From Proteus faecis (GTDB lineage Bacteria > Pseudomonadota > Gammaproteobacteria > Enterobacterales > Enterobacteriaceae): a stretch of 64,000 nucleotides of DNA. The first letter of the stretch is position 1. Each line of letters opens with the position of its first letter. Below the pieces are notes generated by a model. It did not search any database, was not told the origin of the DNA, and worked only from the letters and a program-made list of their open reading frames with translations. The DNA lies in the NCBI RefSeq assembly GCF_003144395.1, contig NZ_PENZ01000012.1:62001-126000 (forward strand), given 5' to 3'. Of the stretch, positions 33,822-45,006 are shown one piece after another. Made by a program: the position numbers and the translations under genes.

Positions 33822-36800
33822 TTAGAAATTAACTTTCAGTGTTGCATTAATACCACTTGAGCTTACATCACTATTATATTGACCTTGGTAAGAAATACCG
33901 AAAGTTGTTGATTTGCTTAATTGCGCATCAACACCAAAGCCAACACCAAATAGATTATCCAGTTTACCACCACGTAATGTTGCATCACCGGAATTTGATA
34001 AGAATAGGCGTGATTCAGGGCGATTATCACCAAATAAATGACTTGCAGAAATATCGCCTTTTAAAGCCATATTAACGTTGCCAGCTATAAATGGATATCC
34101 ACCACGTAAACCAATAGTACCGACTTGAATATCTTGTGAATCAGTCTTAGTGGTAAATTTCATATTACCGACATTTTCATTGATATCATCAGTTGATACA
34201 CGCAACCAGCTAAATCCTGCATATGGCTCAATAGCATATTGATTAGTATTAAATTGAGTATAAGCACCTTCTAAGAAGATTTGAGTAATTTTTGCATCAT
34301 AACTTGTAGAGTTATAACCTGCATTTTGTCCTACCCAAAGTGTTCTTTTTGCATCTCTATCTTGGTTAGTATGTGTGAAACCATAATTTAATGAAGCCAC
34401 ATCATACAAATTAGACACCCCATAAGCACCAATATGGATATCATTGCTGTCTATTTTACCGTGTTCATTACCTTTATATTTGGTTGAACCTGCACCAAAG
34501 AAGAGACCCGCTTTCGTATTTTCAGTCACATCAATTTCTGCGCCTAATAACCCTGCATAGAAATCAACATCCATATTGCTATGACCATAATCAGTATTAC
34601 CCCATTGGCCAATACCTGTCATCCAAATACGTGCGTTACTGCTATCCAATGTAGCATAGCGACCTTGACCAATACCCATAGCTTGATCTTTCACTGTACG
34701 AGTTAACCCTAAAACATTTACGACACTCGCACTGTTTGCATTAAGGTACATATCGCTCCCCAATGAATTATAAGTCTTGCTCAGATCTCTTTCATTCATT
34801 GGTAATACTGCATTGAATAAATCGCCACGACCTGTGCTATTCAATGTATTCGCAATAGAGCGACCATTTTCATTGTTAGCAAAAGTGGCTAAAGAGGTAT
34901 TTTCTTTTTTACTTAATGTACCTGTAATTGTGTTGTCTTTTACAGAAACATTTTTATCAAATAACGCATAGTCACTATTTGCAACCACGCTATTATTCGC
35001 TAACATTTTTGTTTTAGTACGATTATCAACTAAATTGTCTGCATTAACGGAACCTGTCGCAACAGTATTGTTCAGATAAATATCTTTTAACTGACCTTCA
35101 TTATCTGCACCAACATCTAAATTTGCCCCTTTATTTAAGGACATATCGCCGACATTAACATCATGCCCAACGGTCACCAAATATGTACCTTTATCATTAA
35201 TATTAATATTAGCTTTATGACTCTCATTTGATGCCAATTGGCCTTGTTGTGTAAAGGTATCGTTATAGCGATCAATAACACTTAATTTACCGCCATTAAC
35301 ATTAACAGCTTCAGTGCCAAACGATTCGGTAAAGCCATATAACGTTCCTTGCTCGACTGTTGTACCGCCACGATAAGTATTATCGCCAGTCATCACCAAT
35401 GTGCCTTCACCTTTCTTAACTAACGCACCATCATATAAACCGGCGTCAATTTTAGCTTGAATAGCATCAGCACGTTTTTGGTAATACTCTTTACGCCATT
35501 TTTCAGCATCTTCTTTACTTACAATATGCGAGGTTGGATCTGGATTACCATCATTGATAACAAAATCCGTTCCTAGATTATAATCACCACCAGCAGCAAT
35601 GCCTTTATCTGTATATTCCTTCAGCCATGCGAGATCTTCTTGTTCACGTAAATCTAATGCGGTTTGTGAAATATCATTTGTCCAGACATCAAGCGGTGTC
35701 ATGCTTAAGTTATATTCAAATTTACCTAAGAATTGCCCCGGACCATACATCCCTTTATCTAAATCTGGTGTACCCCAACCATAACGCACATCCGGCGTAC
35801 CTTCAGCCGCAGTCCAGCTATCATATAAAGATCCATCTGGGTTATGATGGTTGGCCGTTGTAAACATCACATCACGCACTTGCATCGCATTCATAGAGCC
35901 GTAACGAGACATTAATACGCCCATTGCACCAGTCACATGAGGTGCAGCCATGGATGTACCACTAAAGGTATCCCAACCTGCATTTCCCTCTTCATCAACA
36001 ACTGACGAATAAATGTAACGACCCGGAGCAACCACCGTCCACCATTTCGCATTCCCTGCTTCATTAAAGATTTTTTCTAATTCATAACCTGACTTGTCGG
36101 CATTCTGTTTAAGACCGGCAACAGCGATCCAATGTTTTTCTGCTTCAGGATTAAAATAAGGATAAAGAGGACGATAATAAGGCTGGGCAAAATCGCGATT
36201 ACCGGTTGTAAAGACTTGAACAACATTTGTGCCTTTTACTGCATCATAAGCGGCATCAACAAAGGATGGTTTATCACCATAGACTTTTTTAAAGTAGAAA
36301 TATTCGTATTCTGTTTGTGCAGTAGTATCTACAGGCATATGTTCGGTGGTATTACCACCATCTGGGCCTTTCGTCGGAACTGTATTAATAATTCGAGGGT
36401 TAGTACCCCAGCTATTATTAATCACCTGAGCGCCTGCATCAACCATCGCTTTCCAACCAGTATAGAAATAGGTGTAATCTTGATAAGGGCCGTAGTTATT
36501 GCTATCTGTTGCCCCCGTATTTCCTAAATAAACATCAGCACCCCATGCAACCCCATGCATGCCATTACCGTCACGGCTTGCGCCTACCGTGCCTGTCACG
36601 TGTGTTCCGTGTGTATCATTCACACCTTTGATCCAGCCTCCATCAACATCAAAGGCTTGACCTTTTTCATAATGCCCGCCCAATTTTTGAGGATAGCGCA
36701 TACCTGTTGAACCATATTGGCCTTTGGCTTTAACAGCATGGAAACGCGCATCATTTAATTCAGGATGTGATAATAATGCACCTGAGTCCATCACACCGAT

Positions 36801-37052
36801 TTTGGCACCTTGCCCATGAAAACCAAGCGCATAAGCACTAGAGGCATTCATCGCAGCAAGTCCCCAGTCTTTTTGATACTCTTGGCTTTCCCAACTTTTT
36901 GTATCACCTATTTGCCCAGCTTCTGAATATGCCACAGAATATCCAGAAAAAAGCAACGCTGATGCAACAAGAGAAAGTTGGAATACATTTTTATTTATTT
37001 TATTTTTTTTATTCATTTTGTGATGATGACTTAAAGCTATTTCTTTGTTCAT
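33822..37052 (-). CDS. pta: Subtilisin-like autotransporter, Proteus toxic agglutinin type
   Basis: A 1076-residue type Va autotransporter: long signal peptide (to about residue 42), S8 protease passenger, and C-terminal beta-barrel (about 800-1076, ending LKVNF). The catalytic triad is visible as Asp89 (VMDSG), His148 (DTHGTH) and Ser367 (SGTSMAAPH). An autotransporter-associated repeat, LVKKGEGTLVMTGDNTYRGG, is near 545. AAGG precedes the ATG at 37052. Domain order, length and triad fit Proteus toxic agglutinin, a P. mirabilis protease that autoaggregates bacteria and damages host cells. The symbol is unrelated to phosphate acetyltransferase. It is flanked by housekeeping genes, so acquisition is likely. 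Naming as Pta is from memory of the published protein. Confidence 0.88.
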   Translation of the reverse strand: MNKEIALSHHHKMNKKNKINKNVFQLSLVASALLFSGYSVAYSEAGQIGDTKSWESQEYQKDWGLAAMNASSAYALGFHGQGAKIGVMDSGALLSHPELNDARFHAVKAKGQYGSTGMRYPQKLGGHYEKGQAFDVDGGWIKGVNDTHGTHVTGTVGASRDGNGMHGVAWGADVYLGNTGATDSNNYGPYQDYTYFYTGWKAMVDAGAQVINNSWGTNPRIINTVPTKGPDGGNTTEHMPVDTTAQTEYEYFYFKKVYGDKPSFVDAAYDAVKGTNVVQVFTTGNRDFAQPYYRPLYPYFNPEAEKHWIAVAGLKQNADKSGYELEKIFNEAGNAKWWTVVAPGRYIYSSVVDEEGNAGWDTFSGTSMAAPHVTGAMGVLMSRYGSMNAMQVRDVMFTTANHHNPDGSLYDSWTAAEGTPDVRYGWGTPDLDKGMYGPGQFLGKFEYNLSMTPLDVWTNDISQTALDLREQEDLAWLKEYTDKGIAAGGDYNLGTDFVINDGNPDPTSHIVSKEDAEKWRKEYYQKRADAIQAKIDAGLYDGALVKKGEGTLVMTGDNTYRGGTTVEQGTLYGFTESFGTEAVNVNGGKLSVIDRYNDTFTQQGQLASNESHKANININDKGTYLVTVGHDVNVGDMSLNKGANLDVGADNEGQLKDIYLNNTVATGSVNADNLVDNRTKTKMLANNSVVANSDYALFDKNVSVKDNTITGTLSKKENTSLATFANNENGRSIANTLNSTGRGDLFNAVLPMNERDLSKTYNSLGSDMYLNANSASVVNVLGLTRTVKDQAMGIGQGRYATLDSSNARIWMTGIGQWGNTDYGHSNMDVDFYAGLLGAEIDVTENTKAGLFFGAGSTKYKGNEHGKIDSNDIHIGAYGVSNLYDVASLNYGFTHTNQDRDAKRTLWVGQNAGYNSTSYDAKITQIFLEGAYTQFNTNQYAIEPYAGFSWLRVSTDDINENVGNMKFTTKTDSQDIQVGTIGLRGGYPFIAGNVNMALKGDISASHLFGDNRPESRLFLSNSGDATLRGGKLDNLFGVGFGVDAQLSKSTTFGISYQGQYNSDVSSSGINATLKVNF

Positions 37053-37502: not shown

Positions 37503-38921
37503 TTATTCTAAAGGCGTGACTTCCATTTGACCTACCATACCTTTATCTGCATTTTCTAATAACTGGCTATAATACAGGAAAGGGAAATGCGAATAAGAAG
37601 GCTGTTTTAGTTCCACTAGCAATTCACTTTGATTCTCAATCCAAACAGTATCTTTCCAACCAAAATCGGCGGGTGCAGGTTTCTGACCATTATGATTAAT
37701 CACTTTAAAACGGGCACCTTCAATATGGAATGGTTGCGGTGTCGGTACTGTTACAAGCCAACGCTCCCAGCCATTTTGCTTACCCACTAAATCAATTCTT
37801 GAAAGTTCCCAACGAGCATTATTTATTCCCGGTGGACTGTTATGCAGTTGAATAGTTCTAGGCTGAATAGAGGTAGTAATTTGTGTATCATCTACCGCTA
37901 ATTGCGTAGGAACTTTGTCTGTCATTAATGACATTAATCCGGTTGGTTTAATAGTTAGTATATTGGTATTACGTAATAAATCAGAAGGCTCAAAAATACC
38001 ACGGAGCCTATCCATAAAGCCGGCACTTTGCCCTGCGGTAATGGTGACGTCACCACCTTCAGACATATCAACCAATATTTCACGTCGCTCCCCAGGAGCC
38101 ATTGGAATTGATTTCAATTCTACAGGGGATGTTAATAACCCCTGATCAGAAGCGATAAGGTAAAGTGAACGACCATCATTTGCAGTGAGTTCATAACGAC
38201 GAGCATTAGATGCATTAACTAAACGTAAGCGGATCCAACCTCTAGAAACTTCAATATAAGGATCTTCACGTCCATTAACTAGCAATGTATCACCATAGAA
38301 GCCATCACTAGCAGCTTCTTTGTCGTATTGTGGCGTGCCAAAATTATCAATCCGTTTATCTTGAATAATGATCGGAAAATCATTCACTCCATAATGTTTT
38401 GGTAGCGGTAGGGATTTGCTCTCTTCATCTTCCACAATCCACATTCCGACCAATCCATTATAAACATGAGGAGCCATTTTAAACGGCGTATTGGCGTGAT
38501 ACCAACATGTTGTTGCTTTCTGACGAATAGGCAATACCGGCGACCAATAAGCTCCAGGTGACATTAGTCTTGCAGCCCCGCCGACTTGAGTGCCCGGAAC
38601 TAATAAGCCACTTACCGTCATTGATACCGCTTCATTAAGGCGGTTACTATAAATCAGTTTTATATCATCGCCACTTTTGACTTTGATTGTCGGTCCCGGA
38701 GTTGAGCCATTGATCCCCCAAACTTCCGCTTTTTGAGTACCATTAAACGCCCAATGCACATTTTGCAAAGTTAAGAACAGTGGCTGACCACGACGCGATT
38801 CCAACAATGGCGGTATAGGTAATTTTTTATCATTAACTGATTCAGCACGAACAGAAGATATAGAGCCCAGACATACCGCTAAGCCTGTAGCCTGAATAAA
38901 CTGGCGACGACTAAATGACAT
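37503..38921 (-). CDS. ftsP: Cell division protein FtsP (SufI)
   Basis: Periplasmic multicopper-oxidase-like protein that stabilises the divisome under stress. The 472-residue product (E. coli SufI 470) begins with a twin-arginine signal MSFSRRQFIQATGLAVCLGS. Cupredoxin segments follow (WGINGSTPGPTIKV, WYHANTPFKMAPHVYNGLVGMW). The HxH copper-ligand pairs of true oxidases are largely absent, as is normal for this structural, non-enzymatic protein. It lies downstream of plsC, as in E. coli, with an ERIC element in the gap. Confidence 0.94.
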   Translation of the reverse strand: MSFSRRQFIQATGLAVCLGSISSVRAESVNDKKLPIPPLLESRRGQPLFLTLQNVHWAFNGTQKAEVWGINGSTPGPTIKVKSGDDIKLIYSNRLNEAVSMTVSGLLVPGTQVGGAARLMSPGAYWSPVLPIRQKATTCWYHANTPFKMAPHVYNGLVGMWIVEDEESKSLPLPKHYGVNDFPIIIQDKRIDNFGTPQYDKEAASDGFYGDTLLVNGREDPYIEVSRGWIRLRLVNASNARRYELTANDGRSLYLIASDQGLLTSPVELKSIPMAPGERREILVDMSEGGDVTITAGQSAGFMDRLRGIFEPSDLLRNTNILTIKPTGLMSLMTDKVPTQLAVDDTQITTSIQPRTIQLHNSPPGINNARWELSRIDLVGKQNGWERWLVTVPTPQPFHIEGARFKVINHNGQKPAPADFGWKDTVWIENQSELLVELKQPSYSHFPFLYYSQLLENADKGMVGQMEVTPLE

Positions 38922-39306: not shown

Positions 39307-40056
39307 TTAATTTAACTTACCGGGAAAATCACGTTTATTCATTTCTTCAACTTCTCTGTCTAGCTCTTCAATTTTCGCTTTCATAATTTGACGACAATCT
39401 TCTGCTAATTCTCGAACTTGATCTTTGGTGTATTTTGAAACATCAATTGGAGGTAACATTTCAACAATAACATAGCCATTATTCCAACGGTTTAGCTTGA
39501 TTTTACCCTGCGTTGTTGAAACACAAACAGGAATAATCGGTACCCCCGCTTGAATGGCAGCATGGAATGCCCCCGTTTTAAACGGTAATAATCCACGGCC
39601 ACGGCTACGAGTTCCTTCTGGGAACATCCAAACAGAAATCTTCTTCGATTTAATTTGATCAGCAACTTGTGAAATAGTGCCATGCGCTTTAGAGCGATTT
39701 GCTCTATCAATTAAAATATTCCCCGTGATCCAATACAATTGACCAAAAAAAGGAATAAAAATTAAGCTTTTTTTACCTACTGTAACGGTATTAGGTTGAA
39801 CCGCATTTGACATCGTTACCATATCAAAATTATTTTGATGATTTCCGATATAAATACTTGGACCATAACTTTTTGCTTCTTTTGGAAAGCGCTCAACGAG
39901 TTTGATACCAAAAATAGTAGATAACTTGCCGAATAAGCGTCCATAAGTCATTACATGCTTAGGATTTCTTGGTGAAAACATGCAATAAATCATCCCAAAC
40001 GTCACCACAATAATGGTGTAAAGAATGACAATGATGCCTCGAATAATGGCTAACAT
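39307..40056 (-). CDS. plsC: 1-acyl-sn-glycerol-3-phosphate acyltransferase
   Basis: Inner-membrane enzyme that acylates lysophosphatidic acid to phosphatidic acid. From the ATG at 40056 (MLAIIRGIIVILYTI, matching the family start) it is 249 residues (E. coli 245); an ATG 14 codons earlier is less likely. Acyltransferase motif I NHQNNFD (HX4D) and motif III FPEGTRSRG are intact. An N-terminal hydrophobic helix anchors it. It follows parC by about 65 bp, as in E. coli. Confidence 0.96.
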   Translation of the reverse strand: MLAIIRGIIVILYTIIVVTFGMIYCMFSPRNPKHVMTYGRLFGKLSTIFGIKLVERFPKEAKSYGPSIYIGNHQNNFDMVTMSNAVQPNTVTVGKKSLIFIPFFGQLYWITGNILIDRANRSKAHGTISQVADQIKSKKISVWMFPEGTRSRGRGLLPFKTGAFHAAIQAGVPIIPVCVSTTQGKIKLNRWNNGYVIVEMLPPIDVSKYTKDQVRELAEDCRQIMKAKIEELDREVEEMNKRDFPGKLN

Positions 40057-40078
40057 AAGTTTTAGCGTCCTAAATAGA

Positions 40079-40099
40079 AGTGGGTCAACCAGACCCACT
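40079..40099 (-). terminator. Hairpin between parC and plsC
   Basis: A perfect 8-bp stem AGTGGGTC/GACCCACT (40079-40086 and 40092-40099) lies in the 65-bp parC-plsC gap. The T-tract on the minus strand is poor, so it may be a partial terminator or attenuator. Confidence 0.4.
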
Positions 40100-40121: not shown

Positions 40122-43079
40122 TTAATTTGTTTCAATATCAATATGATCGATAACTTGAGCACCACGAGGTAAAGAGGTTCCTCGACGTCCACGTTTTGCT
40201 TTAAAGCTAACTAGCTCATTCATCGACATGGTTATTTTACGTTTACCAAAATGCAGTGTAACAGAGGCATTTTCAGGTAATACACGTAACCAAGCGACAT
40301 TATCTTCACCACTTGTGGCTTGTGACGCCGGAATAGAAACCATTTGATTTCCTTTTCCTTTTACCATCGTTGGTAATTCCGATGCTTCAAAAATCAGCAT
40401 TCTACCGCCTTTAGTAATGATCATAATGAGATCAGTGAGCTCATTGTTCAAGCGTTGTGGTGGTAATGGTAATGCATTTTCAGGTAAAGTCAGTAATGAT
40501 TTTCCTGCTTTATTTTTAGAAGTTAAATCATCAACCTGACAGATAAAACCATAACCAGCATCAGATGCCATTACGATCTTATCCGTATTTTCGCCCATAA
40601 TAACATGACGTAATTGTGCACCTTTCTGGACTTTTAATCGCTCAGTTAGCGCATCACCTTTGCTACGTCCCGAAGGTAATGCATCAACATCAACGGTGTA
40701 GCTTTGACCTGTGGTGTCAATTAAGTGTACTGGTTGATTACTCATCCCTTCAACAGCATCAAAATAATCATCACCGGATTTAAAACCAACCGATTTAGCA
40801 TCGATACTATGTCCTTTTTGACAACGAATAAGTCCTTTTTCAGACATAATGACGGTAACTGCTTCAGGATGTAGATGTTTTAACGGAATAGGTTCATCAC
40901 CCGCATTACCGCTAAAATAGTTGATCTCTTCTGCTTTAAGCACTTCTTGCTGACCATCAACAGTAAAGATTAATGCTTCATCTTTAGGTGCAAACAGCAT
41001 TTGTTCAATCACATCACCTTGTTCTTTTCCTAAAGCAACAAGACGTGTACCACGTCCTTTTTTATTCATTTCATTCAGTTGTTCGGCTGAAATGGCTAAA
41101 ATACGTGTTTTATCAGTGATGATAATAAACCAGTGTTGCTCATTTTTCTTTTGAGGATCAACTAAGAGTGGTGCTAATAATTCAGTCTCTTCAGAAACGG
41201 TTAGTAGCCCTTTACCTGTTTTATTCTTCGTTTCCATCTCATCGTAGGAAAGAACTGAGCCATAACCTTCTTTTGTTGCCAGTAAATATTCTTGTCCCGC
41301 ACTTCCCGCTAACATGTATTTCACACTGGCTTCAGGTGGGAAAGTTAACTTACCGGTTAATGGTTCGCCTTGGCTACGTCCTGAAGGCATATCATTTGGA
41401 CTCAAGGTATAGCTTCGTCCGGTGGAATCAAGGAACAGAACAGGCTGATTACTCATACCTCGTACGGCACTGTGATAACTATCCCCAGCGCGATAACTCA
41501 TGCCTCTAGGATCAATATCATGTCCTTTTGCATTACGTACCCAGCCCATTTCAGAAAGTACAATGGTGACAGGCTCTGATGGCAACATATCTTGCTCATT
41601 CACTACTTTCGCCTCTTCTTGAGGGCGGATAGGTGAACGACGATCATCACCAAATTCTTTTGCGTCGGCTTCAATTTCTTTTTTCAGTAAAGTATTTAAA
41701 CGACGTGGTGAGCTTAATAATTTCTCAATACTATCGCGTTCTTTTTCAAGCTCATCACTTTCGCCTTTTAGTTTCATCTCTTCCAGTTTGGCTAAATGAC
41801 GTAAACGTAATTCTAAAATAGCTTCAGCTTGAATATCAGATAACTCAAAACGACGCATTAATTCTGCTTTTGGCTCATCTTCATGACGAATAATTTCAAT
41901 CACTTCATCAATATTGAGATAAGCAATTAATAAACCTTTGAGGATCTCTAAGCGACGTAAAACTTTTTCTAAACGATGATTTAATCGGTTTGTCACTGTT
42001 TGGCGACGATAAACTAACCATTCGTTTAAAATAGTCAGTAACCCTTTTACTGCTGGGCGGTTATCTAACCCAATCATATTTAGGTTAATGCGATAACTTT
42101 TCTCTAAATCAGTATTCACAAACAAGTAGTACATCACTTGTTCTAAATCGACGCGATTACTACGAGGAACAATAACAAGTCTAGTAGGATTTTCATGATC
42201 AGATTCATCACGTAAATCTTCAACTAAAGGCAGTTTTTTTGCTCGCATCAATGCAGCGATTTGCTCAAGTACTTTGGCACCAGAAACTTGATGAGGTAAT
42301 GCCGTGATCACCGCACATCCTTCTTCTTTCTGCCACACTGCTCTCATTCTGACAGAGCCACGTCCTGTTTTATAAATCTTTTTGATATCGTCTTGAGCAG
42401 TAATAATTTCAGCTTCAGTCGGATAATCAGGGCCTTGAACATATTGCATCACGTCAGATAACCCTGCATCAGGGTTATCTAAAAGCATGACTAAAGCTTG
42501 CCCTATTTCACGCGCATTGTGCGGTGGAATGTCCGTTGCCATCCCAACAGCAATACCCGTTGTGCCATTAAGCACAATATTAGGTAAGCGTGCTGGCAAC
42601 ATTTTCGGCTCTTGCATCGTGCCGTCAAAGTTAGGGATCCAATCTACCGTACCATGACCTAATTCACTCAATAATGTTTGTGAATATTTAGAAAGGCGTG
42701 ACTCGGTATAACGCATCGCAGCGAAAGATTTTGGATCATCCGGTGCCCCCCAGTTACCTTGTCCATCAATTAACGGATAACGGTAAGAGAACGGTTGAGC
42801 CATCAGTACCATTGCTTCATAACATGCACTATCACCATGCGGATGATATTTACCTAGCACGTCACCAACAGTACGGGCTGATTTTTTAAATTTAGCGGTA
42901 TTACTTAAACCAAGCTCTGACATCGCATAAACGATGCGACGTTGCACAGGTTTTAGCCCATCTCCAATAAAAGGTAATGCACGATCCATAATGACGTACA
43001 TGGAGTAGTTGAGATAAGCATTTTCTGTAAATAAGTGGAGCGGTTGGCGCTCTACACCATCATGAGTCAATTCACTCAT
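40122..43079 (-). CDS. parC: Topoisomerase IV subunit A with duplicated C-terminal domain
   Basis: ParC cleaves and rejoins DNA in the ParC2ParE2 decatenase. The N-terminal 500 residues are standard: [15 protein letters not shown] with Ser84 and Glu88, the quinolone-determining residues in susceptible form, and catalytic Tyr124 in AAMRYTES. The protein is 985 residues, about 230 more than E. coli ParC (752). The excess is an in-frame tandem repeat of the beta-pinwheel domain: [12 protein letters not shown] at 502 recurs as [12 protein letters not shown] at 739, GMSNQPV at 541 and 778, and [11 protein letters not shown] as [11 protein letters not shown], all offset by 237. The second copy carries the usual C-terminal GKRKIT and KRGRRGTS segments. 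No frameshift interrupts it. It follows parE by 31 nt. Confidence 0.96.
40125..41576 (-). repeat. Tandem duplication of the ParC C-terminal domain coding region
   Basis: Copy 1 encodes residues about 502-738 (40866-41576) and copy 2 residues 739-985 (40125-40865). Landmark motifs recur with a constant 237-residue offset. The copies have diverged substantially in protein sequence, so the duplication is old rather than an assembly error. Confidence 0.85.
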
Positions 43080-43110: not shown

Positions 43111-45006
43111 TTACACTTCGATGTCAACTTCATCGCCCTTCTCTTGTAACCAATTTCGGCGATCTTCAGAGCGTTTCTTCGCTAACAACATATCCATCAT
43201 GCCTAAGGTTTCTTGATAATTTTCATCATCAATCACCAATTGCACTAAACGACGCGTATTAGGATCAAGCGTTGTTTCACGCAGTTGAAGAGGATTCATC
43301 TCCCCCAAACCTTTAAAGCGCTGTACGTTAGGCTTTCCTTTTTTACGACTTAAACGTTGTAAAATGGCATTTTTTTCTGATTCATCAAGGGCATAATGAA
43401 CTTCTTTACCTAAGTCGATACGGTAAAGTGGTGGCATCGCCATATAAACATGCCCTTCCTTAACAAGAGCCGGGAAATGGCGCACAAATAAAGCACACAA
43501 TAAAGTTGCGATATGTAAACCATCCGAGTCCGCATCCGCAAGAATACAAATTTTACCGTAACGCAGTTGGCTTAAATCATCGCTATCAGGATCCATACCA
43601 ATTGCTACCGAAATATCATGGACTTCTTGTGACGCTAACACTTCATCTGAAGAGACTTCCCATGTATTTAGGATCTTACCGCGCAAAGGCATAATCGCTT
43701 GATATTCACGATCTCGAGCTTGTTTAGCAGAGCCTCCTGCAGAGTCCCCTTCAACCAAAAATAGCTCGGTGTAACGTAAATCTTGAGAAGTACAATCAGC
43801 CAATTTACCCGGCAATGCTGGCCCTGAAGTGAGTTTCTTTCTCACCACTTTTTTAGCTGCTCGCATACGACGTTGAGCGCTACTAATTGCCATTTCAGCA
43901 AGTAATTCACCGACTTGAACGTTTTGATTTAGCCATAAGCTAAAAGCATTTTTTACTGCATTTGCAACAAACGCACTCGTCTGTCTTGAAGAGAGTCGCT
44001 CTTTGGTTTGCCCTGCAAATTGGGGATCTTGCATTTTCACTGATAATACATAAGCACAACGCTCCCATGTATCATCAGCGGTTAACTTAAGGCCTCTTGG
44101 TAGTAAATTACGGAATTCACAAAATTCACGCATTGCATCTAACACACCTTGGCGTAAACCATTTACGTGTGTACCACCTTGAACTGTCGGAATTAAGTTA
44201 ACATAGCTTTCAGTAAGTAGATCGCCACCTTCAGGTAGCCATAACATAGACCATTCAACGGCTTCATTATCTCCTTCAAATTTACCTGTAAAAGGCTCTT
44301 CAGGAAGGCGAACAAATTCAGCAACAGCTTCACTTAAATAATCGGTTAAACCATCAGCGTAACACCAATTTTCTTGGGTGTTGTTTACTTTATCGACAAA
44401 AGAAACATTCACGCCCGGGCACAATACCGCTTTAGCTTTTAATACATGAGATAAGCTTTTAGAAGAAAAACGAGGAACATCAAAATAAGTCCCATCAGGC
44501 CAAAAATGCACACTCGTTCCTGTGTCTCGTTTTGCACAGGTGCCAATCTCATGCAACTCTTCAACTTTATCGCCATTTTCAAAGGCTATTTGGTAAATTT
44601 TACCATCACGACGAACAGTTACTTCAATACGTTTTGAGAGGGCGTTAACAACCGAGATCCCCACACCATGCAACCCGCCAGAAAATTGATAGTTTTTATT
44701 AGAGAATTTTCCTCCGGCGTGGAGGTGAGCAAGGATTAACTCGATAGCTGAAACCTTAAGTTCCGGGTGAATATCGACAGGCATTCCTCGCCCATTATCG
44801 ATAACTTCGATAGATTGATCTGCATATAAAATGACATCGACCTTCGATGCGTGTCCCGCAAGCGCCTCGTCCACGCTATTATCTATCACTTCCTGTGCCA
44901 AATGGTTCGGTCTTGTTGTATCTGTATACATCCCTGGACGGCGACGTACAGGCTCTAGACCATTAAGAACCTCAATATCCTTTGCGTTATAACTTGATTG
45001 AGTCAT
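43111..45006 (-). CDS. parE: Topoisomerase IV subunit B
   Basis: ATPase subunit of topoisomerase IV; separates daughter chromosomes. The 631-residue protein (E. coli 630) shows the GHKL ATPase motifs EVIDNSVDEA, VIDNGRGMPVD and GGLHGVGISVVNALS, and TOPRIM motifs LVEGDSAGGSAKQ and ADADSDGLHI. PLRGKILN and RFKGLGEMNP are also diagnostic. Unlike E. coli, where parC and parE are separated, here parE lies 31 nt upstream of parC, so the two subunits are probably made from one transcript. Confidence 0.97.
   Translation of the reverse strand: MTQSSYNAKDIEVLNGLEPVRRRPGMYTDTTRPNHLAQEVIDNSVDEALAGHASKVDVILYADQSIEVIDNGRGMPVDIHPELKVSAIELILAHLHAGGKFSNKNYQFSGGLHGVGISVVNALSKRIEVTVRRDGKIYQIAFENGDKVEELHEIGTCAKRDTGTSVHFWPDGTYFDVPRFSSKSLSHVLKAKAVLCPGVNVSFVDKVNNTQENWCYADGLTDYLSEAVAEFVRLPEEPFTGKFEGDNEAVEWSMLWLPEGGDLLTESYVNLIPTVQGGTHVNGLRQGVLDAMREFCEFRNLLPRGLKLTADDTWERCAYVLSVKMQDPQFAGQTKERLSSRQTSAFVANAVKNAFSLWLNQNVQVGELLAEMAISSAQRRMRAAKKVVRKKLTSGPALPGKLADCTSQDLRYTELFLVEGDSAGGSAKQARDREYQAIMPLRGKILNTWEVSSDEVLASQEVHDISVAIGMDPDSDDLSQLRYGKICILADADSDGLHIATLLCALFVRHFPALVKEGHVYMAMPPLYRIDLGKEVHYALDESEKNAILQRLSRKKGKPNVQRFKGLGEMNPLQLRETTLDPNTRRLVQLVIDDENYQETLGMMDMLLAKKRSEDRRNWLQEKGDEVDIEV

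What the first reader, a model, noticed from the sequence alone, without database searches (positions are those of the whole stretch)
40122..43079. ParC with a tandemly duplicated C-terminal beta-pinwheel
ParC here is 985 residues against about 752 in E. coli. Residues 502-738 and 739-985 are homologous: [31 protein letters not shown] twice, [22 protein letters not shown] and [20 protein letters not shown] all recur at exactly 237 residues. Copy 1 is closest to E. coli ParC in its first part and copy 2 in its C-terminal part ([14 protein letters not shown]). The pinwheel governs DNA wrapping and preference for positive supercoils, so a double pinwheel could change topoisomerase IV specificity or its contacts with MukB.
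Basis: partly seen in the sequence, partly recalled or inferred. Interest (0 to 1): 0.72.

Follow-up and report, generated by a model that had tools for sequence, protein, structure and literature searches.

The report
Proteus topoisomerase IV with two pinwheels
In the bacterial genus Proteus, the essential enzyme that untangles newly copied chromosomes carries its DNA-gripping tail domain twice in a row, and the two copies keep different parts of the ancestral tail, offering a natural test of what that tail does.

Summary
The ORF at 40122-43079 (-) encodes a 985-residue ParC whose C-terminal beta-pinwheel occurs twice (residues 502-738 and 739-985; 33% identical). It is not an assembly error: all 20 Proteus genomes searched hold both copies, 19 in an intact frame, one frameshifted in copy 2 and also in parE; so do ten named Proteus records. 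In a family draw, 139 of 140 matches outside Proteus have frames of 746-810 aa, one is degraded. The duplication arose once on the Proteus stem, diverged fast, then came under purifying selection. Conservation is reciprocal: copy 1 keeps ancestral repeats 1-2 (34 of 36 invariant columns) but not 3-5 (16 of 46); copy 2 keeps 22 of 36 and 39 of 46. The two arginines needed for MukB binding in E. coli survive only in copy 2; Proteus MukB keeps the matching acidic residues. Best reading: an inner pinwheel for docking and DNA, an outer one for MukB. That split is inferred; the joint 3D arrangement could not be modelled. Reported ParC tails have three to eight blades; this has ten repeats.

The parts
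40122..43079 (-). parC, 985-codon topoisomerase IV subunit A with two C-terminal pinwheels
41610..43079 (-). ParC N-terminal breakage-reunion part, residues 1-490; Y124 (42708-42710) is equivalent to E. coli Y120
   Evidence: PF00521 33-469; alignment to 1zvu; position. That Y120 is the catalytic tyrosine is recalled
40866..41576 (-). Copy 1 of the pinwheel, residues 502-738
   Evidence: predicted fold matches 1zvt_B, E=1e-15, TM 0.68
41334..41576 (-). Copy 1 repeats 1-2, residues 502-582: ancestral-like (34 of 36 columns invariant in single-pinwheel relatives kept)
40866..41333 (-). Copy 1 repeats 3-5, residues 583-738: diverged (16 of 46 kept); positions equivalent to E. coli R705 and R729 are Q711 and K734
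40125..40865 (-). Copy 2 of the pinwheel, residues 739-985
40623..40865 (-). Copy 2 repeats 1-2, residues 739-819: more diverged (22 of 36 kept)
40125..40622 (-). Copy 2 repeats 3-5, residues 820-985: ancestral-like (39 of 46 kept); keeps R947 (E. coli R705) and R972 (E. coli R729)
43111..45006 (-). parE, topoisomerase IV subunit B, 631 aa, 31 bases upstream of parC
   Evidence: TIGR01055 1151 bits, cut-off 723.35
39307..40098 (-). plsC-like acyltransferase gene directly downstream; parC-plsC is also the E. coli order
   Evidence: TIGR00530 158.6 bits, cut-off 102.95; the PlsC equivalog NF011593 is matched at 409.8 bits, below its cut-off of 501; E. coli order

Best explanation
This is the genuine ParC of Proteus, in which one ancestral tandem duplication doubled the whole five-repeat C-terminal pinwheel, giving ten repeats. 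Shown: both copies are present throughout the genus as sampled, both are conserved there, copy 1 by itself is predicted as a pinwheel, and ancestral features are divided between the copies. Inferred: the two copies form two pinwheels in a row on each ParC arm. The inner one (copy 1) keeps the repeats next to the core and most of the basic residues of repeats 1-4, so it docks on the core and bends DNA, but it has lost the basic last repeat and with it the MukB site. The outer one (copy 2) keeps that last repeat and binds the MukB hinge. In E. coli one and the same last blade is reported to serve MukB and perhaps transfer-segment DNA, so that they interfere; in Proteus the duplication would let topoisomerase IV stay tethered to MukB through the outer pinwheel while the inner one handles DNA, and would place the MukB site farther out on a longer arm.
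For: Genus: 20 of 20 genomes match, 19 over residues 1-984/985 in frames of 985-989 aa; in the twentieth (G213/L050) the frame ends after 770 codons, but residues 773-985 are encoded in another frame at 93% identity and parE is split into three pieces too, so sequencing error is likely. Single origin: the NTD tree puts the double form on one branch (support 100, stem 0.30); in the tail tree copies 1 and 2 each form one group (support 100), copy 2 with a stem of 2.44 and copy 1 on a branch of 3.45 plus 0.83 either side of the midpoint root. Change point between the copies after E. coli residue 578 (bootstrap 569-587; statistic 24.6 against a maximum of 16.2 in 2000 permutations). E. coli R705 and R729: R/R in 35 of 35 single-tail rows (E. 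coli and 34 of the best-matching relatives held) and 29 of 29 copy-2 rows, Q/K in 29 of 29 copy-1 rows (19 distinct proteins; frameshifted L050 left out). ParC R705E R729A does not bind MukB, nor MukB D697K D745K E753K bind ParC (passages of PMC8523169 and PMC8934648); the window genome's MukB keeps D697, D745 and E753. Of 25 positions basic in at least 90% of singles, repeats 1-4 keep 14 of 16 in copy 1 and 12 of 16 in copy 2; repeat 5 keeps 2 of 9 in copy 1 and 7 of 9 in copy 2. dN/dS among six Proteus genomes 0.02-0.09 in every segment. The passages of PMC8934648 say that MukB suppresses crossover capture by topoisomerase IV, and a section of PMC8523169 that hinge binding impairs tail-DNA contact.
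Against: No biochemical or expression data. The double domain was not modelled with confidence (pLDDT 47, pTM 0.36). The copy-1 model has pLDDT under 50 over its first 54 residues (the linker and repeat 1) and at 76-87, and its alignment included copy-2 rows, so its likeness to the E. coli tail is not independent of copy 2. Copy 1 repeats 3-5 carry a net charge of -8 against +2 to +6 for about the same part of six single-tail proteins, which speaks against strong DNA binding by copy 1 as a whole. Taken alone, copy 2 has no significant change point. The common switch point is explained at least as well by a nested arrangement (first rival). dS is 0.8-1.7, near saturation. MukB was examined in the window's genome only.
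Confidence: 0.45

Rival explanations
1. Nested domains. Repeats 1-2 of copy 1 and repeats 3-5 of copy 2 come together as the ancestral pinwheel, docked on the core and carrying the MukB site, while residues ~583-819 (repeats 3-5 of copy 1, then repeats 1-2 of copy 2) bulge out as a second, circularly permuted pinwheel that is free to diverge.
For: The two halves of the putative ancestral pinwheel are the better conserved halves, and the difference between the copies switches at the repeat 2/3 boundary. A profile of 35 single-pinwheel tails scores copy-1 repeats 1-2 plus copy-2 repeats 3-5 at 372 bits, against 313 for copy 2, 222 for copy 1 and 163 for the reciprocal combination (pieces of the window protein were joined in the script only for this score, cut at residues 592/593 and 829/830, ten residues beyond the change point computed later).
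Against: The rows shown have no added residues at either crossing point, and the chain would have to cross between the two rings twice, although neighbouring pinwheel blades are interlocked by exchanged strands (PMC3797127 passages). The same pattern follows from plain division of labour.
Confidence: 0.22
2. One continuous ten-repeat array (open spiral), not two rings: repeat 5 of copy 1 packs directly on repeat 1 of copy 2.
For: Distances between equivalent turn positions are 42, 51, 53, 51, then 40 across the junction, then 42, 51, 50, 53; the junction keeps the repeat period. The C-terminal strand region after the last repeat is missing from copy 1; that it closes the ring is my inference. 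Open and spiral pinwheels exist (PMC3797127 passages).
Against: Copy 1 alone gives a model matching the E. coli ParC tail over 244 columns, although alone it could hardly show anything else.
Confidence: 0.18
3. A fixed but functionally near-neutral relic: the extra repeats fold and are tolerated but change nothing important.
For: Functional effects are untested; both copies diverged fast on the stem.
Against: Every segment is under purifying selection among six Proteus genomes, dN/dS 0.02-0.09; 108 of 154 residues of the most diverged piece are invariant among 19 distinct proteins; none of 20 genomes has lost the extra copy, one being frameshifted in it.
Confidence: 0.12
4. Assembly error, frameshifted pseudogene or strain-specific oddity.
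For: The window's assembly has 52 contigs.
Against: The same intact gene is in 18 further Proteus genomes, four of them of one contig, and in ten named records; the copies are only 33% identical, so they cannot be a misassembled repeat.
Confidence: 0.01

Closest known systems
E. coli ParC (topoisomerase IV subunit A; PDB 1zvu, tail 1zvt, tail with MukB hinge 4mn4)
   Same: Same core, parC-plsC gene order, same pinwheel repeats, MukB-contact arginines (in copy 2).
   Different: E. coli has one five-blade pinwheel and 752 residues; Proteus has ten repeats, 985 residues, and one of the two copies lacks the MukB arginines.
ParC proteins with variable blade number (range three to eight; Corbett et al. 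2005 as cited in PMC3797127 and PMC4297366, passages seen; the 2005 paper itself was not seen)
   Same: Blade number in ParC tails is known to vary between bacteria.
   Different: Ten repeats made of two whole five-repeat units lie beyond that range; outside Proteus no double tail was found in the draws inspected.
GyrA C-terminal domain (spiral in E. coli, PDB 1zi0)
   Same: Same fold family; the copy-1 model matches it more weakly (1zi0_B E=1.5e-08).
   Different: Six blades with a GyrA box (passage); the window's genome has a separate 884-residue ParC-like frame, presumably GyrA (not tested further).

Membership tests
ParC, Gram-negative type (TIGR01062) | Score above the curated cut-off | tested here: met
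   1379.8 bits against 628.9
ParC, Gram-negative type (TIGR01062) | Breakage-reunion domain with the active-site tyrosine | tested here: met
   PF00521 459 bits; RYT with Y124 aligned with E. coli Y120; the tyrosine's role is recalled
ParC, Gram-negative type (TIGR01062) | Partner ParE encoded and of normal length | tested here: met
   TIGR01055 1151 bits, 631 aa, adjacent upstream
ParC, Gram-negative type (TIGR01062) | A single C-terminal pinwheel (not a formal criterion of the model, but the usual form) | tested here: not met
   985 residues, two copies; outside Proteus 139 of 140 family-draw matches have frames of 746-810 aa. I take this as variation within the family
Beta-pinwheel (GyrA/ParC C-terminal domain) | Copy 1 has the fold | tested here: met
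   Model pLDDT 66, pTM 0.68, first repeat poorly modelled; Foldseek best hit 1zvt_B, E=1e-15, TM 0.68
Beta-pinwheel (GyrA/ParC C-terminal domain) | Copy 2 has the fold | tested here: met
   By sequence only: 820-983 aligns with 1zvu, 1zvt and 4mn4; profile of single tails 313 bits over residues 1-246 of copy 2; no model of copy 2 alone was made
Beta-pinwheel (GyrA/ParC C-terminal domain) | Two separate rings in the whole protein | tested here: inconclusive
   Model of the double domain has pLDDT 47
MukB-binding ParC | R705 and R729 equivalents, and D697/D745/E753 in MukB | tested here: met
   Copy 2: R947 and R972; MukB residues kept in the window's genome; copy 1 fails (Q711, K734)
MukB-binding ParC | Physical binding to the MukB hinge | not testable with these tools
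   -

The most novel reading that the evidence does not exclude
Proteus has separated, by duplication inside one polypeptide, two jobs that interfere on the last blade of ParC in E. coli: holding transfer-segment DNA and binding the condensin MukB. Its topoisomerase IV can hold MukB with the outer pinwheel and DNA with the inner one at once, so that condensin-coupled decatenation works without mutual inhibition; or the second pinwheel is even a circularly permuted domain nested inside the first.
Probability: 0.3. Interest if true: 0.82.

Novelty: new variant of a known kind. Interest (0 to 1): 0.6.

Why it matters
Topoisomerase IV is essential and a fluoroquinolone target, and how its tail works with MukBEF is debated: one intact ParC dimer per hinge or two, and how tails about 190 A apart reach hinge sites about 45 A apart (section of PMC8523169). 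A genus whose ParC carries two pinwheels, only one with the MukB arginines, is a natural separation-of-function form for those questions. It also means that results from E. coli topoisomerase IV may not carry over to Proteus mirabilis, a common urinary pathogen.

Tried and rejected
Assembly artefact: rejected. Recent duplication or gene conversion between the copies: no matching direct DNA repeats, 33% protein identity; rejected. Other genera with a double tail: in the class draw three genomes other than the window's have frames over 830 aa (G645, G666, G680); all three were inspected and have one tail and a long open frame upstream; six class-draw frames are under 700 aa (incomplete genes) and say nothing. 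The listings are cut, so those draws do not prove absence; G431 (836 aa), G813 (827 aa) and the 822-888 aa below-cut-off rows were not inspected. Papers by Vos et al. 2013 on the ParC tail and the MukB-ParC structure were not read: the one asked for is not held, the other I know only as cited in PMC8523169. Literature searches for a duplicated ParC tail or a Proteus ParC pinwheel: 20 of 837 listed; 11; 20 of 119 listed; 7; 1; 1; 0; I saw listings, and passages of PMC4297366, PMC12324340 and PMC3797127, and found nothing on it. The library lacks most subscription journals.

Full report
What is there. The ORF 40122-43079 on the minus strand is a 985-codon parC scoring 1379.8 bits to parC_Gneg (cut-off 628.9). 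It lies 31 bases downstream of parE (631 aa) and upstream of a plsC-like gene; parC-plsC is also the E. coli order. E. coli ParC has 752 residues. Its structure sequence 1zvu aligns with residues 31-597 and then with 820-983: about 230 extra residues sit in the middle of the tail. Copies 502-738 and 739-985 are homologous (BLASTP E=1e-44, 33% identity; Smith-Waterman 346 against at most 59 in 500 shuffles). Each holds five repeats; equivalent turn positions are spaced 42, 51, 53, 51 in copy 1, 40 across the junction and 42, 51, 50, 53 in copy 2, against 42, 51, 49, 53 in E. coli.

How widespread. Genus search: 20 of 20 genomes match; 19 cover residues 1-984/985 in frames of 985-989 aa; in the twentieth, G213, the frame ends after 770 codons. 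There residues 773-985 are encoded in another frame (93% identity) and parE is split into three pieces, so sequencing error is the likely reason. A named-genome scan returned ten loci, all Proteus (penneri, terrae, cibi, vulgaris, sp. FME41, hauseri, mirabilis, myxofaciens, alimentorum, columbae), all with a 985-aa ParC; the scan used six peptide patterns, four of them from diverged parts, so it favours Proteus and is no test of absence elsewhere. Family draw: 142 of 198 genomes match at E<=1e-150; two are Proteus; of the other 140, 139 have frames of 746-810 aa and one is a degraded gene with 16 stops. Class draw: 123 of 143 match; besides the window, frames above 830 aa are 1063, 858 and 850, all inspected and with one tail; six frames are under 700 aa and incomplete. 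Order draw: 381 of 394 match, but the listing is cut; the longest listed frame besides the window is 836 aa, not inspected.

History. A tree of the N-terminal part puts the double form on one branch (18 distinct double and 34 distinct single rows; support 100; stem 0.30), among single-tail genera of the same family, which are unnamed. In a tree of the tails, copy 1 (18 distinct rows) and copy 2 (19) each form one group with support 100; the copy-2 stem is 2.44, the copy-1 branch 3.45 plus 0.83 either side of the midpoint root; copy 2 lies among the single tails. So one duplication on the Proteus stem, then fast change in both copies. Within the genus both are conserved (85-100% identity), with dN/dS of 0.02-0.09 in all five segments among six genomes (14-15 pairs each), dS being near saturation.

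Division of features. The comparison set is 35 single tails: E. coli and 34 of the best-matching relatives held as loci, one of them from another family of the order. Against these, copy 1 is 65-72% identical in the four 25-residue bins up to E. coli residue 585 and 13-31% in the next six; copy 2 is 40-56% and 42-59%; among themselves the singles are 79-86% and 61-81%. A change-point analysis of the difference between the copies over 231 columns puts the switch after E. coli residue 578 (569-587), near the boundary between repeats 2 and 3. Of 36 columns invariant in singles before it, copy 1 keeps 34 and copy 2 keeps 22; of 46 after it, copy 1 keeps 16 and copy 2 keeps 39; 9 of 82 are lost in both. 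Taken alone, copy 1 has a significant change point at residue 580 and copy 2 has none, so the pattern is carried mainly by copy 1's collapse. Copy-1 repeats 1-2 joined to copy-2 repeats 3-5 score higher against the single-tail profile (372 bits) than either copy (222 and 313); the reciprocal pair scores 163.

MukB. In E. coli, ParC R705E R729A does not bind the MukB hinge, and MukB D697K D745K E753K does not bind ParC (passages of PMC8523169 and PMC8934648). R705 and R729 are present in 35 of 35 single tails and in 29 of 29 copy-2 rows; copy 1 has Q and K in 29 of 29 (19 distinct proteins; L050 left out). The window genome's MukB keeps D697, D745 and E753 (66.5% identity over 260 residues around the hinge). 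Of 25 positions basic in at least 90% of singles, repeats 1-4 keep 14 of 16 in copy 1 and 12 of 16 in copy 2, but repeat 5 keeps 2 of 9 in copy 1 and 7 of 9 in copy 2 (repeat limits set by me). So copy 1 lost mainly the basic last repeat. According to PMC8523169 (section read), the same C-terminal blade may hold transfer-segment DNA, hinge binding impairs tail-DNA contact, and the two E. coli tails lie about 190 A apart against about 45 A for the hinge sites.

Structure. The double domain modelled from 11 Proteus sequences is not usable (pLDDT 47). Copy 1, with both copies of eleven proteins as alignment, gives pLDDT 66 and pTM 0.68, mostly above 70 from about residue 100 of the fragment and poor before about residue 55, and matches the E. 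coli ParC tail best (1zvt_B E=1e-15, TM 0.68, rmsd 7.6 over 244 columns). How the ten repeats are arranged together is open: two rings in a row (my preference, on economy of chain path), nested rings, or one spiral.

Reading. Shown: anatomy, presence across the sampled genus, single origin, divided conservation, MukB arginines in copy 2 only. Inferred: inner pinwheel for docking and DNA, outer pinwheel for MukB, relieving an interference described in E. coli. Against it: copy-1 repeats 3-5 are acidic overall (net -8), and nothing has been measured.

Known or new. ParC tails of three to eight blades are reported (passages of PMC3797127 and PMC4297366 citing Corbett et al. 2005). Ten repeats made of two whole units, and the split of the MukB site, were not found in the searches made, of which I saw listings and some passages. 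It is a ParC, so a new variant of a known kind.

Noticed in passing
L110 (G760:C1:1214500-1221500) and 12 other rows: In one family (f179) of the phylum draw, 13 listed genomes have ParC matches in frames of 1425-1469 aa; the one inspected is a natural ParE-ParC fusion: ParE at 28-650, ParC core at 712-1213, ParC tail at 1221-1435.
   Followed up: partly
L050 (G213): A one-contig Proteus genome has frame breaks in both parC (copy 2) and parE, as expected of uncorrected sequencing errors.
   Followed up: partly
window 33822-37052 (-): Autotransporter-type subtilisin-like serine protease of 1076 aa: 467 bits to EprS (NF051851), below its cut-off of 1700; autotransporter repeat TIGR02601 above its cut-off.
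   Followed up: no
window 37503-38921 (-): FtsP, a cell division protein related to multicopper oxidases (NF008135, 811.8 bits, cut-off 581).
   Followed up: no
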